A DNA stretch of 64,000 nucleotides. Origin: a virus. The stretch lies in the IMG/VR virus record IMGVR_UViG_3300045919_000097, positions 1-64,000 of that record; one strand, 5' to 3'. Both the position numbers and the translations under genes were made by a program. The notes under the pieces were generated by a model. That model saw nothing but the letters and a program-made list of their open reading frames with translations, had not been told where the DNA came from and ran no database searches. Below are positions 52,059 through 62,304 of the stretch, in pieces; position 1 is the stretch's first letter, and every line of letters starts with the position of its first letter.

Positions 52059-52787
52059 TTAGTACTTGCACAAACCAGGACCACCTTTGGCTTTGCCGCT
52101 TTGTCCATAAAAGCACCAGTGACATTTGTCATTGGGCTTAGCAACAAAGGATGTGTCGGCAAACATTGGTTTCACACGTTTTTCCCAAAGCTTTTTGAGC
52201 TTAGGAATGTCAGTGCGATCGTAAACTATTTCCTCATCCGGCATAGGATAAGTCATGCCTTGGTCAAGATACACAAGCCGAGGCTTCACGTATTCAATGT
52301 ATGGATGCAAAAGCAATGCGGCCAGTGCGTACAACTGGAGCTGCTCAAGATATTCCTCATGCAGTTCTGCACGCATCTTGCCAGACTTCCAGTCAGTAAC
52401 AATCATGATGTTGTTGGCTTCGACGTGGGCAGCATCTAGCTTGATACGGACCCAGCACTTGACCCAGTTATTCCACTCAGTCCTGTCCCACGTATTGGTG
52501 AATGCCCAGTTGTCTTCAACCGTGATACCAACAGCACGCTTCTTGTAGAGCAGCCGTAGCTTCTTGAACTCATCAGCAAAGAGCTTGAGTTCTGCTGGCA
52601 GCTTTGTGATAACACCTTTGAGGTACTGCTCAGCCGTTGTGTGGATGTCAGCACCACGTTGCATGGCGTCGTTCTTTGGCTCTGCAATCTTCATCAAAGC
52701 CGAGAGCTTGAACTTTAGTGGACATTGTCTCCAAAGAGAGTACCGGCTGAAGCTCCAAGAAGTAACTTTCATTTTATCGGTTGCCAT
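52059..52787 (-). CDS. Cas4/RecB-like PD-(D/E)XK nuclease
   Basis: 242 residues from ATG at 52787, overlapping the polymerase stop. WSFSRYSLWRQCPLKFKL with MQRGADIHTTAEQYL (RecB-type His motif), IMIVTDWKSGK (motif with catalytic D...DxK) and YLEQLQLYALAALLL (QxxxY) are all in the standard order. C-terminal CHWCFYG and GLCKY provide further Cys residues of a possible iron-sulphur cluster. It is likely a 5' exonuclease for recombination-dependent replication or end resection. There is no CRISPR array here. Confidence 0.82.
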   Translation of the reverse strand: MATDKMKVTSWSFSRYSLWRQCPLKFKLSALMKIAEPKNDAMQRGADIHTTAEQYLKGVITKLPAELKLFADEFKKLRLLYKKRAVGITVEDNWAFTNTWDRTEWNNWVKCWVRIKLDAAHVEANNIMIVTDWKSGKMRAELHEEYLEQLQLYALAALLLHPYIEYVKPRLVYLDQGMTYPMPDEEIVYDRTDIPKLKKLWEKRVKPMFADTSFVAKPNDKCHWCFYGQSGKAKGGPGLCKY

Positions 52788-54690
52788 ATAGCAGTTTGCC
52801 TTTCTTGTCGTAATCAATCAAATCTGCCCATGACTTGTCAGACCATGAACCTTCACTGAGCATTGGGACGTCAAACTCAATGCCCTCCATCGTAACTCTC
52901 AGACGCTCCATGCTGTCCTTGATTGTCTTCTTAGGAACTGATGCCGTGAGCTGGTCATGGACATTGAGCAAGAGTCTCTCACCGGGTTTTTTAACTTTGT
53001 GCCAGCGGATGATGGCTTCTTTTGTGCAGTCTGCAGCTGAACCCTGGATCAACGCGTTTGGCAGCTTGTAGCTGAATTCCATTGTGCGGCCGTTGATCAT
53101 CTTAGGCTCTTCGCAATAGTATTCACGGCCACCCCACGTCTTGATTGGGATATTGTTCTTGGCACGTTGCTTCATGTCCTTGTACATGTCCTTGAGCCCT
53201 GGATACAGCAAAAGAATTGCTTTCTTGAGTTCGCCAGCGTCTTCGACTGACATGCCATTCTTCTCAGCTAGCTTGCCCACGCCCATGCCGTAAATCAATC
53301 CCAAGTTGGTGTTCTTGACTGGCTTACGTTCATAGAACTTGCCCATTTTTTCCAGCTCAGCTTTGGCATAGTCGTGGAAGTCAATCCATGGATTCTCGTT
53401 GTATTTGTCCATGAGCTCACCACCATCGAAGTGAGCCAAGATCCGAGGTTCTTGCTGCGAGTAATCTCGGTCAATCAAGACGTCGCCATCCGTATACGGA
53501 ATGACGTAGCTTCTGCATTGAGGTAAGTCTGGAAGATCCTTGAGCGGACACTTTGGCAGCTTAGGATCCTGATGGTGCCACAGGTTGTCAAAGTCCTTAG
53601 GCATGTTCATGAACCACGTTGCAGACAAGCGCCCGGTCCGTGTTCCTATGGCCGTAGCGCCTTCTGCCGATTTTGTCTGGTTCCAGCTTGTGAAGATGTA
53701 CCCGCCTGAATTAGAGGCCATTTCCATCCATGGGCCCATGAACGTACCAACGCACGTTTTCAAGCTGGTGCGGTACTTGAGCATGGCCAGAAGCACCTTG
53801 TCAGATACTCCTACAAGCAGCGCATCCTTGTTAGTCTGGTATTTGCCAGTAGCCGTCAGTGGCATGAGTTCTTCATCGACCTTGCCGGCAGCAATCATGG
53901 CTTTCATCAACTCATCGCCAGAATTCAGGTTGATGTCTGGTGGTGCCTTGAGCGTCTTGATAATCCAAGCATCGATTTTGTGCTGCCAAGCCGTGTAGTC
54001 CAGCACATCTTTGACCAGCCTCTTGTAATCGACACGGATGCCTTCGCGCTCCATGGACAGCAAGATGAGCATGAGCTCACGCTCACGGTTGTACGCGCTA
54101 TACATTCCACGCTCAACAATGCTTTCGTACAACTTCAGGAAAAGACCCTCGGTGCGGTCAGTATCGCCTTCAGCATATTTGCCCACAATGTCAGCTGGTG
54201 CAAACGCAATGTACTTACCAAAGTAGTGCTCAGAAGCCTTAGACTTGCTGATCTTTATATCTGGTATTGGCTGGTTCTCTAGGAGCCAGTCTCTGACCTC
54301 ATCCTGCTCATCTGGAGACATAGAGAGGAGCCGTTCTGCAGACGGTTTAAGACCCAACTCAGTTTGGTTTGGATCATCTAGAAAGACCAGAAACAGGGTA
54401 TCGTGGATCTGTTGCCAAGGCAGCATGGGAAGGCCCATGTGGGTTTCAGCAACGTCTATATCAAACTTCCCGTTGTGGAAGATGACGCCATCATTGCTGT
54501 CCCAGACTTCTAGCAAAGCATCTCTGGCTTCGCCCCATGAGCAGTTGTTTCCAATGACGTGGCCCCAAGCATAGTACTTGGATTTCTTGCCGGGCTTTTT
54601 GATTGATACGCCGACTGGAACCGGAGGGTACACTGGTCGAGCCAGAATCCCCATCGTTTCAAAGTCTACGGTGGGTCTGGTGCTTTTCAT
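52774..54690 (-). CDS. polA: Family A DNA polymerase with 3'-5' exonuclease
   Basis: 638 residues. The N-terminal proofreading domain has VDFETMG and FHNGKFDIDV, with the last acidic motif in KYAEGDTDRTEG. The polymerase domain has motif A DRDYSQQEPRILAHF (from D407), motif B RKPVKNTNLGLIYG (R455, K459) and motif C NVHDQ (576-580). The residue equivalent to E. coli Phe762 is Leu463, the form reported to be common in temperate or slow phages and known to affect fidelity and speed. There is no 5'-3' exonuclease domain. It is the phage replicase, coupled to neighbours on both sides. Confidence 0.95.
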   Translation of the reverse strand: MKSTRPTVDFETMGILARPVYPPVPVGVSIKKPGKKSKYYAWGHVIGNNCSWGEARDALLEVWDSNDGVIFHNGKFDIDVAETHMGLPMLPWQQIHDTLFLVFLDDPNQTELGLKPSAERLLSMSPDEQDEVRDWLLENQPIPDIKISKSKASEHYFGKYIAFAPADIVGKYAEGDTDRTEGLFLKLYESIVERGMYSAYNRERELMLILLSMEREGIRVDYKRLVKDVLDYTAWQHKIDAWIIKTLKAPPDINLNSGDELMKAMIAAGKVDEELMPLTATGKYQTNKDALLVGVSDKVLLAMLKYRTSLKTCVGTFMGPWMEMASNSGGYIFTSWNQTKSAEGATAIGTRTGRLSATWFMNMPKDFDNLWHHQDPKLPKCPLKDLPDLPQCRSYVIPYTDGDVLIDRDYSQQEPRILAHFDGGELMDKYNENPWIDFHDYAKAELEKMGKFYERKPVKNTNLGLIYGMGVGKLAEKNGMSVEDAGELKKAILLLYPGLKDMYKDMKQRAKNNIPIKTWGGREYYCEEPKMINGRTMEFSYKLPNALIQGSAADCTKEAIIRWHKVKKPGERLLLNVHDQLTASVPKKTIKDSMERLRVTMEGIEFDVPMLSEGSWSDKSWADLIDYDKKGKLLYGNR

Positions 54691-58976: not shown

Positions 58977-59194
58977 TTCACCGCCTCCAGTTTTCTGTTG
59001 ATCCGTGCAATCACCTCATTAAAGTATTCCCGTTCAGCTTCAAGATCCTCAAGGTCCTCTGCGTATTCATTGACGTCTGGGCAACTTCCCATTTGCGTAT
59101 GCAAGTCAGAAATAGCAAGCTCCAAAGCACGGCGCAACATTTCCAACGATTTCTTGCCGGTGAATGTGATATTTGGTGTGCGAGCTTTTGTCAT
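58973..59194 (-). CDS. Small hypothetical protein
   Basis: 73 residues, helical, with an acidic middle (SCPDVNEYAEDLEDLEAEREYFNEVIARIN) preceded by a basic start. It is likely a two-helix coiled-coil hairpin. It overlaps both neighbours by 4 nt in the early cluster. Function unknown. Confidence 0.6.
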   Translation of the reverse strand: MTKARTPNITFTGKKSLEMLRRALELAISDLHTQMGSCPDVNEYAEDLEDLEAEREYFNEVIARINRKLEAVK

Positions 59195-59382
59195 GCTTGC
59201 CTCTTTGCTTTGTCTGTACCCAGCAGCGTTTTCTGGTAGGCGGGTTTACGGTGTTCAGCGCAGCAGACAAGGATGATGTCGTCGCCACGAAACCAGCTGG
59301 TCTCTATGGCAAACCGCTTTGACATCTTAGATGGGCATCCTGGATAGTCACATGGACGTGCCTGAGCTTGCTTTTTGGTCAC
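59191..59382 (-). CDS. Small putative zinc-binding protein
   Basis: 63 residues with CDYPGCPSKM near residues 11-20 and VCCAEHRK near 39-46: CxxxxC and CCxxH are a plausible zinc site. Basic overall (pI expected high). It overlaps both neighbours by 4 nt. No family identified; size and cysteines resemble phage early zinc-knuckle proteins. Confidence 0.58.
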   Translation of the reverse strand: MTKKQAQARPCDYPGCPSKMSKRFAIETSWFRGDDIILVCCAEHRKPAYQKTLLGTDKAKRQA

Positions 59383-59651
59383 TTTGGATCCTTGTTACAA
59401 GGACATTCTGCAGCGCCCAAATACTTTCCATTTGGCTGCAGTGGATTTTGATCTGAGCACCATGATTTATGCATTAAATCCTTGTTCTGGATCCTGCGGC
59501 CATCGGTCTTGTCGTAGACGCATGGGCAGGTGTACATGGCAATGTAGTTGGCCTTCTTGCCAGCTTGGCGCTGCTCAGGAATTACCTGAGAGACCGGTAT
59601 GTTGAACATCTCAGCAGCCTTCATGGCGTGAGGATCTTGATCAGAGTACAT
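59379..59651 (-). CDS. Mini protein with a DNA polymerase I O-helix (motif B) segment
   Basis: 90 residues from ATG at 59651, overlapping the upstream stop by 11 nt. Residues 6-40 align without gaps to the fingers of E. coli DNA polymerase I before and through the O-helix. D6 and H8 match the D-x-H, AAEMF matches AAEVF, EQR is identical, and R28, K32, N35, Y36 and Y40 fall at the spacing of R754, K758, N761, F762 and Y766. The remaining 50 residues are unrelated and hold a CPC...C...CPC cysteine set. No palm domain or motif A/C is present, so it cannot be a polymerase. Remnant, decoy or replisome-binding peptide are possibilities. Confidence 0.65.
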   Translation of the reverse strand: MYSDQDPHAMKAAEMFNIPVSQVIPEQRQAGKKANYIAMYTCPCVYDKTDGRRIQNKDLMHKSWCSDQNPLQPNGKYLGAAECPCNKDPK

Positions 59652-59820
59652 TCTGCAGTTCCAGTGTCTTGTCCATGAGATCCCGAGTTGCTTCCATCTC
59701 AGTGGCTCCGCGGCCAACAGGCGCATTTGGATTCTCGTAATCGTGATTGTTCCACACCGCAGACCAGTCAAAGTCACGGCATGGGACAGGAGGATTTTCA
59801 AAGATTGTTATGATTGTCAT
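59641..59820 (-). CDS. Small hypothetical protein, probably leaderless
   Basis: 59 residues from ATG at 59820 to TGA at 59641. It contains PCRDFDWSAVWNNHDYENPNAPVGRGATEMEATRDLMDKTLEL, the pattern of a common short phage protein (DWSA...GYGATExEAxxDL). The -10 box of promoter P7 ends seven bases before the A of the start codon, so the mRNA would begin at the ATG with no ribosome-binding site. Overlap with the next gene supports a real coding pair. Confidence 0.7.
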   Translation of the reverse strand: MTIITIFENPPVPCRDFDWSAVWNNHDYENPNAPVGRGATEMEATRDLMDKTLELQNVL

Positions 59821-61127: not shown

Positions 61128-62023
61128 GACATGTCTTCCTTAGCTCTGAACCCTTTGAACACTGGAAACCGTGGAGCATCCTTGCAGCCGACTGGGAAGT
61201 ACTTGTAGGTCAGGACTTTTCCAATGAGCTTGGGGTCTCCCCAGATTGCAGCCCTTTGTGCGTCAGTAAAACCTGAGCCAACACCAAACTCCATTCCTTT
61301 GAAAGGTCCATTGATTCCGCGGACTTGGAGAGTACCCATAGTGTTCGTACCAACCATGCCGGACTTTTTGCTTGAGCGTTCAAGCTGGCCAAGAGCGTTC
61401 TTGATAGCCGTGTTACCATTGTGTAGTTTCTCTTCCATGCCTATCACAACAGCTTCGGCATCTGCAAAGCGTTTTAGCTTGATCAATGCTCCTTCGTTGA
61501 GTGTAGACCTGCCTTGCTTGTATTGTGACCCTAGGGACCTCATAATGAGTCCCTCGTACCCTTCTGTCAGGTAATGTTCTTCCAGTTTGAGGAGCTGCTC
61601 GGCACTATAGATGATGTGCTGCTTGACCTGGATGATGTTTTCAGTTCCACACATGCCGGCTAGCTTGACCTCAAGCCTCTGGTCTCTGTCTTGGAACGAT
61701 GCCATGCGGTCGTACAGGTCAAACACGTGGAACTTGAAGTCAGGTTCTCCAGCTTTAGACATGACTGCAGACTGGGTTGTCTGGAACACATCCTTGGCCG
61801 TTGGCGACCCGACAATCAATTCACCGTCCAACCCATCGAGTTTGAGGAACAAACCCAGGCTCTTTTGGATATGGACGTTTGGTATTGGCTTTAGGTTTCG
61901 GCTGACTAACTGGCCATCCTGAACTAAGCACCGTACCCCATCTAATTTCGCCGATACGGCCACGGGGTACGTTAGTTGCTGTGGATCTCTTATAGTTACG
62001 CCGAGCATTGGCTTGAATTTCAC
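61124..62023 (-). CDS. ATP-dependent DNA ligase
   Basis: 299 residues from GTG at 62023, preferred because GGGAGGGG lies just upstream and the codon overlaps the J-domain gene stop. It has the nucleotidyltransferase motifs: SAKLDGVRC (catalytic Lys of KxDG), SRNLKPIPN (Ia), LDGELIVG (III), FHVFDLYD (IIIa), TEGYEGLIMRS (IV) and LIKLKRFADAE (V). A C-terminal OB-fold follows with LQVRGINGPFKGMEFGVGSGF. A small replicative/repair ligase of the T7 class that seals nicks using ATP. It is followed by a coupled small basic protein. Confidence 0.93.
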   Translation of the reverse strand: MKFKPMLGVTIRDPQQLTYPVAVSAKLDGVRCLVQDGQLVSRNLKPIPNVHIQKSLGLFLKLDGLDGELIVGSPTAKDVFQTTQSAVMSKAGEPDFKFHVFDLYDRMASFQDRDQRLEVKLAGMCGTENIIQVKQHIIYSAEQLLKLEEHYLTEGYEGLIMRSLGSQYKQGRSTLNEGALIKLKRFADAEAVVIGMEEKLHNGNTAIKNALGQLERSSKKSGMVGTNTMGTLQVRGINGPFKGMEFGVGSGFTDAQRAAIWGDPKLIGKVLTYKYFPVGCKDAPRFPVFKGFRAKEDMS

Positions 62024-62304
62024 CGGCCCCTCCCTTCGCATTTGGGGCAGCGCATTTCGTGGCGATTGAAGCCTTTGCCGGCTTCGATTTTTCCCGTCCC
62101 ATCACAGTTTTTGCATCTTGCTTCATAATCAGTCTCGTACTTCATTGCCGCTTGGTACGCCTTACGGATCTCGGTAAACACCACAACGTTGGCGTCCGGG
62201 TTACTGTCAGGATGGTGCTGCTTGGCAAGCGTCCTCCATCGTGCTTTCAAGAATTCAGCCCCGCATTTTGGGACAACGCCAAGTATGTTGTGGTGTTTCG
62301 TCAT
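62020..62304 (-). CDS. Mini J-domain protein with half zinc finger
   Basis: 94 residues. Residues 1-55 are a minimal J domain with the HPD motif in KQHHPDSNPDANVVVFTEIRKAYQA, the segment that stimulates DnaK ATPase. Residues 62-94 hold one DnaJ-type zinc half-site (CKNCDGTGKIEAG, then CPKCEGRG). It lacks the Gly/Phe region and substrate-binding domain of full DnaJ. A phage J protein could redirect host DnaK to a replication complex, as the T-antigen J domain does. The coupling to DNA ligase supports a replication role; this is inference. Confidence 0.78.
   Translation of the reverse strand: MTKHHNILGVVPKCGAEFLKARWRTLAKQHHPDSNPDANVVVFTEIRKAYQAAMKYETDYEARCKNCDGTGKIEAGKGFNRHEMRCPKCEGRGR

What the first reader, a model, noticed from the sequence alone, without database searches (positions are those of the whole stretch)
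59379..59651. A stand-alone DNA polymerase I O-helix in a 90-residue protein
Residues 6-40 align gap-free with the E. coli Pol I segment through the O-helix. They match the D-x-H, AAE-x-F and EQR elements and place R28, K32, N35, Y36 and Y40 exactly at R754, K758, N761, F762 and Y766. No other polymerase part is present, and the tail has a CPC...C...CPC cysteine set. The phage's own polymerase at 52774-54690 is more divergent in this segment. It may be a domesticated fragment acting on host Pol I, a dNTP/DNA-binding peptide, or a remnant.
Basis: partly seen in the sequence, partly recalled or inferred. Interest (0 to 1): 0.75.

Follow-up and report, generated by a model that had tools for sequence, protein, structure and literature searches.

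The report
Free-standing DNA polymerase I O-helix miniprotein
This phage carries a small gene that encodes, on its own, the 38-residue piece of DNA polymerase I that grips the incoming nucleotide; similar stand-alone pieces, some clearly kept by selection, turn up in several unrelated phages, so it looks like a reused small domain that has not been described as such, whose job is still untested.

Summary
On the minus strand, 59651-59379 encodes a 90-aa protein whose residues 3-41 match only positions 182-220 of Pfam DNA_pol_A. A polymerase profile built without it gives 47.5 bits; the best of 82,900 shuffled frames gives 10.9. H8, R28, K32, Y36 and Y40 fall on Pol I H734, R754, K758, F762 and Y766. 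The predicted model overlays Taq 635-673 at 1.0 Å. The ORF sits in a tightly overlapping gene run with coding-like codon use.

It is not: the same module opens short proteins in Saclayvirus (about 20 phages, dN/dS 0.06-0.28), Friunavirus (about 30), Corkvirinae and an uncultured phage, and the N-terminus of phikmvvirus gp12. Tails differ in each. Host phages tested also carry a full PolA whose own segment is atypical; the small proteins resemble canonical bacterial Pol I instead.

Best reading: a domesticated N/O-helix hairpin used as a small phosphate-, nucleotide- or nucleic-acid-binding domain. Function is inferred, not shown. The window's own copy has no orthologue in six related phages and its Cys tail has no relatives, so a remnant or recent capture cannot be excluded for this copy.

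The parts
59379..59651 (-). 90-aa stand-alone Pol I N/O-helix protein (whole ORF, ATG start at 59651, TGA stop at 59381-59379)
   Evidence: codon-usage score 0.289 in frame against -0.350 and -0.247 in the other two frames of that strand
59529..59645 (-). PolA-like module, residues 3-41 (helix N 7-16, short turn helix 20-22, helix O 25-40)
   Evidence: DNA_pol_A positions 182-220; AlphaFold2 mean pLDDT 97-98 over residues 11-30 and 90 over 31-40; overlay on Taq 635-673, 1.0 Å over 39 residues
59382..59528 (-). Cys-rich tail, residues 42-90 (C42-P-C44, H61, C65, C83-P-C85), possible metal site
   Evidence: Sequence; no Pfam match, no phage match better than E = 3; model pLDDT about 50-60 with a weak beta-hairpin in both predictions
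59641..59820 (-). Upstream 59-aa gene, overlaps the start of the mini gene by 11 bases; conserved next to DUF932 in relative L030
   Evidence: no Pfam or PHROG match
59191..59382 (-). Downstream 63-aa Cys-containing gene, GTG start overlaps the mini gene's stop (GTGA)
   Evidence: no Pfam or PHROG match
52774..54690 (-). The phage's own full-length family A DNA polymerase, atypical in the N/O-helix segment
   Evidence: DNA_pol_A E = 2.3e-45; 4.9 bits with the canonical segment profile

Best explanation
The gene encodes the N-helix/turn/O-helix hairpin of a canonical family A DNA polymerase as a free-standing domain with a Cys-rich tail. Shown: homology, predicted fold, retention of the phosphate-contacting residues, and recurrence in unrelated phages with purifying selection in two of them. 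Inferred: the hairpin is a small domain that binds phosphate-rich ligands (dNTP, pyrophosphate or DNA) through the conserved R28/K32/Y40/H8 face, and the variable tail decides where it acts (possible metal site here, short helical-looking tail in Saclayvirus, predicted membrane helix in phikmvvirus gp12). It is not a polymerase: it lacks both catalytic carboxylate motifs.
For: Homology and its significance. Fold: with an alignment pLDDT 97-98 in the core, overlaying Taq, Klenow, Bacillus and Pol theta fingers at about 1.0-1.7 Å; the single-sequence prediction gives the same secondary structure. Recurrence in unrelated phages with different tails: Saclayvirus 55-69 aa, Corkvirinae 60 aa, phikmvvirus gp12 225-312 aa, Friunavirus 59 aa, uncultured L281 61 aa. 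Purifying selection: Saclayvirus dN/dS 0.06-0.28, phikmvvirus module 0.13-0.43, Friunavirus one pair about 0.32. Across six lineages R754 is kept in five (Q in Friunavirus), position 758 is always K or R, Y766 is always Y and position 734 is H or Y; G763 and G767, frequent in polymerases, are often lost. Precedent: Mullen et al. 1989 (J Biol Chem 264:19637) and 1993 are titled on substrate and DNA binding to a 50-residue peptide of Pol I (seen in the reference lists of PMC4082485 and PMC4390853); [quoted passage not shown] That the Pol I peptide spans residues 728-777 is from memory; the model aligns to Klenow 728-768.
Against: No biochemical data for any member. The window copy has no orthologue in six related phages and the tail has no relatives. 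F762 and H734 equivalents are not strictly kept, so a full dNTP site is not preserved in every lineage; Friunavirus lost R754. The polymerase set used for comparison was picked with a pattern that demands R and K, so its conservation there is not an independent measure. The stand-alone proteins were found by similarity to each other, which also favours conserved positions. The alignment-based model used polymerase rows, so its overlay is partly built in.
Confidence: 0.42

Rival explanations
1. Mimic of host Pol I: the small protein imitates the canonical bacterial O-helix to compete for, or titrate, something that binds host Pol I fingers, or interferes with host Pol I itself (poisoning, decoy, or escape from a host factor that senses polymerase).
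For: The stand-alone segments score 66-122 against E. coli Pol I but only 27-33 (noise) against the PolA of their own phage, in window, CX5, PPWS2, phiKMV, D22, CP14 and Aci02-2. Every host phage tested also has its own PolA, so host Pol I should be dispensable to it.
Against: No partner known; the conserved basic face is explained as well by ligand binding; the association with atypical own PolA was not tested against a background rate.
Confidence: 0.22
2. Remnant or recent capture: this copy is a fragment of a polymerase gene picked up by recombination, translated but without a selected function.
For: No orthologue in six relatives with PolA 61-78% identical; in the closest one (L030) the neighbouring genes are kept and this gene is absent. 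The tail has no relatives. In L281 the small gene lies 11 bases downstream of an HNH endonuclease gene, a class of mobile gene that moves flanking DNA.
Against: Intact ORF with coding-like codon use, start and stop overlapping both neighbours, all phosphate-face residues present, and the same module kept by selection elsewhere. No polymerase remains flank it. No HNH gene was recognised beside the window copy or the Saclayvirus copies.
Confidence: 0.25
3. Exapted DNA-binding domain: the AAxxFxIPxSxV...R stretch works like a helix-turn-helix and the protein is a small sequence-specific DNA binder or regulator.
For: The stretch reads like a helix-turn-helix to the eye; phikmvvirus and some Friunavirus homologues are annotated as DNA-binding proteins, though probably by annotation transfer only.
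Against: All listed Foldseek/VIA-align matches are family A polymerases, none a helix-turn-helix protein (only the top rows are shown, so absence is not proof). Conserved residues follow the polymerase pattern, including Y40.
Confidence: 0.08

Closest known systems
Family A DNA polymerase fingers subdomain (Pfam PF00476; E. coli Pol I, Taq)
   Same: Residues 3-41 match profile 182-220; predicted fold overlays Taq 635-673 at 1.0 Å
   Different: No motif A, no motif C, no palm, thumb or exonuclease; cannot be a polymerase
phikmvvirus gp12 (PHROG 6982, called DNA polymerase or DNA-binding protein in records)
   Same: N-terminal module at residues 3-40, kept by selection
   Different: 225-312 aa with a hydrophobic C-terminal helix; no Cys tail
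Saclayvirus 55-69-aa hypothetical proteins (e.g. Acinetobacter phages CP14, D22)
   Same: Module starts at residue 3-4; whole protein little more than the module
   Different: Short helical-looking tail without the Cys set; 30-34% identity overall to the window protein
Corkvirinae 60-aa protein (Pectobacterium phages PPWS2 ORF5, CX5) and PHROG 38792 (62 aa, unknown function)
   Same: Highest module identity to the window (51% over residues 6-40); PHROG 38792 matches PPWS2 ORF5 at E = 7.8e-6 and phiKMV gp12 at 4.9e-6
   Different: PPWS2 protein also keeps a shortened motif A-like stretch (MEYSDIELALLAE) with Asp replaced by Glu; the window protein does not
Friunavirus 59-aa proteins (Acinetobacter phages A43Y, ABWU2101, Abp1 and others)
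   Same: Module plus a short tail in the early region, conserved in about 30 phages
   Different: R754 equivalent is Q and K758 equivalent is R; Gly/Pro-rich tail
Synthetic 50-residue substrate-binding peptide of Pol I (Mullen, Mildvan 1989, 1993)
   Same: Segment of Pol I in isolation, reported to bind substrate and DNA (titles); same region by memory
   Different: Man-made; the phage proteins are natural and have extra tails

Membership tests
Family A DNA polymerase (PF00476) | Motif B, R-x3-K-x3-[FYL]-x3-Y on the O-helix | tested here: met
   R28, K32, Y36, Y40 in gap-free alignment
Family A DNA polymerase (PF00476) | Motif A with catalytic Asp (D705) | tested here: not met
   Protein begins five residues before D6; match starts at profile position 182
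Family A DNA polymerase (PF00476) | Motif C (HDE) and palm/thumb | tested here: not met
   Tail 42-90 has no Pfam match; no other match in the record except the full PolA
Family A DNA polymerase (PF00476) | Score at or above the Pfam gathering cut-off (34.3 bits) | tested here: not met
   24.6 bits
Stand-alone N/O-helix phage proteins (grouping proposed here) | Module at the N-terminus, polymerase homology ending at or just after the Y766 equivalent | tested here: met
   Residues 3-41 of 90; compare
Stand-alone N/O-helix phage proteins (grouping proposed here) | D6, A12, F16, K/R32, Y40 kept | tested here: met
Stand-alone N/O-helix phage proteins (grouping proposed here) | Phage also encodes a full-length PolA | tested here: met
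   Window and six other records
Stand-alone N/O-helix phage proteins (grouping proposed here) | Protein under purifying selection | tested here: inconclusive
   Met in Saclayvirus and phikmvvirus; no orthologue of the window copy to test
Stand-alone N/O-helix phage proteins (grouping proposed here) | Common origin of the stand-alone genes | tested here: inconclusive
   38 columns; one clade not rejected (p-AU 0.51) and not supported
Helix-turn-helix DNA-binding domain | Fold match to a helix-turn-helix protein | tested here: inconclusive
   Listed matches are all family A polymerases
dNTP/DNA-binding peptide of Pol I | Measured binding of dNTP or DNA | not testable with these tools
   Needs purified protein

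The most novel reading that the evidence does not exclude
Phages have repeatedly turned the nucleotide-gripping hairpin of bacterial DNA polymerase I into a separate small domain with a ligand- or partner-binding function of its own, combined with changing tails.
Probability: 0.5. Interest if true: 0.75.

Novelty: new variant of a known kind. Interest (0 to 1): 0.6.

Why it matters
The O-helix is one of the best studied pieces of any enzyme, and it is normally thought of as meaningful only inside a polymerase. If phages keep it as a free domain under selection, it gives a natural counterpart of the synthetic Pol I peptide that was reported to bind substrate and DNA on its own, a clean test of how much a polymerase fragment can do alone, and a possible new class of small phage effectors of nucleotide or Pol I biology. 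It also flags misannotation: several of these proteins are recorded as DNA polymerase.

Tried and rejected
(1) Circular permutation in phikmvvirus gp12 (motif B first, then a motif A-like DYADLEARVAASL): seen at E = 2.45 but absent in JB10 and unrecognisable in MPK7 and PJNP013, so rejected as a defining trait. (2) Decayed polymerase gene behind the Saclayvirus copies: the downstream frames show no polymerase continuation. (3) Copying from the phage's own PolA: own PolA has no recognisable match to the small protein. (4) Relatives of the Cys tail: tblastn and patterns that require the module followed by Y-x-C-P-C in genome and viral contigs gave no relative; the in-frame hits that were printed look like chance. 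(5) Direct homologues in IMG/VR by peptide patterns: none. (7) Single or multiple origin: undecidable on 38 columns. (8) Deletion studies of phiKMV-like phages PE3 and PpY1 (PMC7835345, PMC11596505): their genes are numbered differently; in PpY1 the homologue is probably gp15, which is in neither the deletable nor the non-deletable list. (9) H211/L302 is a full PolA, not a stand-alone gene. (10) Klebsiella phage RCIP0075 (E = 3) and Kosakonia Kc259: a longer unrelated protein and a full PolA.

Full report
What is there. On the minus strand, bases 59651-59379 encode MYSDQDPHAMKAAEMFNIPVSQVIPEQRQAGKKANYIAMYTCPCVYDKTDGRRIQNKDLMHKSWCSDQNPLQPNGKYLGAAECPCNKDPK. The ATG overlaps the end of a 59-aa gene by 11 bases and the TGA overlaps the GTG start of the next gene. 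Codon usage learned from the phage's larger genes gives 0.289 in frame and -0.350 and -0.247 in the other two frames of the strand; the longer TTG-started frame upstream scores -0.138, so the ATG start is the likely one.

Is it really Pol I? Yes. Pfam finds DNA_pol_A only, residues 3-41 against positions 182-220, E = 1.5e-5. A profile of 31 polymerase segments that did not include the window gives 47.5 bits; the best of 82,900 shuffled frames gives 10.9 and the phage's own PolA 4.9. The alignment to E. coli Pol I is gap-free over 732-766. H734, R754, K758, F762 and Y766 are residues that line the incoming nucleotide in family A polymerases (established knowledge); the window has H, R, K, Y, Y. 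Nothing else of a polymerase is present in the protein or near it.

Fold. AlphaFold2 with 51 rows gives pLDDT 97-98 over residues 11-30 and about 90 over 31-40, helices 7-16 and 25-41, and a poorly predicted tail. Without an alignment the same helices appear at lower confidence. The listed PDB matches are family A polymerases (no Foldseek hit reached E 0.001, as expected for so short a segment), with 1.0 Å over 39 residues to Taq 635-673 and 1.4 Å to Klenow 728-768. The rows were mostly polymerase segments, so this is a consistency check and not independent proof.

It is not alone. tblastn against 50,697 phage records led to short proteins that consist of this module plus different tails: Pectobacterium phages PPWS2 and CX5 (60 aa, which also retain a shortened motif A-like stretch), Acinetobacter Saclayvirus (55-69 aa, about 20 phages), phikmvvirus gp12 (225-312 aa, module first, hydrophobic helix last), Friunavirus (59 aa, about 30 phages) and an uncultured IMG/VR phage (L281, 61 aa). 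In L281 the gene follows an HNH endonuclease gene by 11 bases. PHROG 38792 (62 aa, unknown function) matches the same module.

Selection. Over the module, Saclayvirus pairs give dN/dS 0.06-0.28 with conserved ribosome-binding site and start; phikmvvirus pairs give 0.13-0.43; one Friunavirus pair gives about 0.32 from few changes; PPWS2 against CX5 is too close to judge (0.38 from nine changes). So in at least two lineages these are selected proteins.

What is kept. One representative per lineage: D732, A738 and F742 equivalents are invariant; 758 is always K or R; 754 is R in five of six; 766 is always Y; 734 is H or Y, as in polymerases. G763 and G767, common in polymerases, are often replaced. 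Keeping basic and aromatic positions of the nucleotide face while losing others fits a retained binding face. The comparison set was picked by a pattern requiring R and K, which limits the strength of this argument.

Relation to the phage's own polymerase. Window, CX5, PPWS2, phiKMV, D22, CP14 and Aci02-2 each have a full-length PolA too. Aligned to that PolA, the small proteins score 27-33 (noise), but 66-122 against E. coli Pol I. They are therefore not recent copies of the resident polymerase and look like the canonical bacterial type. Whether they share one origin cannot be decided on 38 columns.

Mechanism. Committed reading: a domesticated hairpin that binds phosphate-bearing ligands through the R/K/Y face, targeted by its tail. 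Steps shown: homology, fold prediction, residue retention, recurrence, selection elsewhere. Steps inferred: ligand binding, role of tail. Precedent: a synthetic 50-residue Pol I peptide was reported to bind substrate and DNA (titles of Mullen et al. 1989 and 1993, seen in the reference lists of PMC4082485 and PMC4390853). The main rivals are mimicry of host Pol I and, for this copy, a remnant.

Limits for this copy. Six related phages (PolA 61-78% identical) lack the gene; in L030, which keeps DUF932 (86%) and the 59-aa neighbour (46%), other small genes lie there instead. The Cys tail has no relatives. The function of the window protein is thus argued from its cousins.

Verdict. Observation confirmed; interpretation partly supported and widened. 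I found no paper describing stand-alone O-helix proteins, but the paper library is partial. New variant of a known kind.

Noticed in passing
L007:2992-3801 and homologues in L295-L301: phikmvvirus gp12, called DNA polymerase in RefSeq and DNA-binding protein elsewhere, has only the N/O-helix module of a polymerase plus a C-terminal hydrophobic helix; the name is misleading. MPK7 and PJNP013 seem to carry a second partial copy of the module (HRALGAAFGMPDIEVTP in MPK7).
   Followed up: partly
L281:8944-9443: Stand-alone O-helix gene 11 bases downstream of an HNH endonuclease gene; PPWS2 (L003) also has an HNH gene about 0.9 kb upstream of its small gene.
   Followed up: partly
L091:8640-9392 and L149:7126-7878: 251-aa proteins that end with an O-helix-like module (DPYLDKAAKIFGVAPEDVTEVQRHLGK) at the C-terminus instead of the N-terminus.
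   Followed up: no
window 52774-54690 (-): The phage PolA has motif C as VHDQ in place of the usual VHDE, and a shortened N/O-helix spacing (DFH...RKPVKNTNLGLIYG).
   Followed up: no
window 62020-62304 (-): 94-aa protein joining a J-domain to a DnaJ-type zinc-binding region (Pfam DnaJ E = 2.3e-9, Anti-TRAP 2.5e-7), next to an ATP-dependent DNA ligase.
   Followed up: no
L003:1964-2146: PPWS2 ORF5 keeps a compressed motif A-like stretch (MEYSDIELALLAE) directly before the O-helix module, with the catalytic Asp replaced by Glu.
   Followed up: partly
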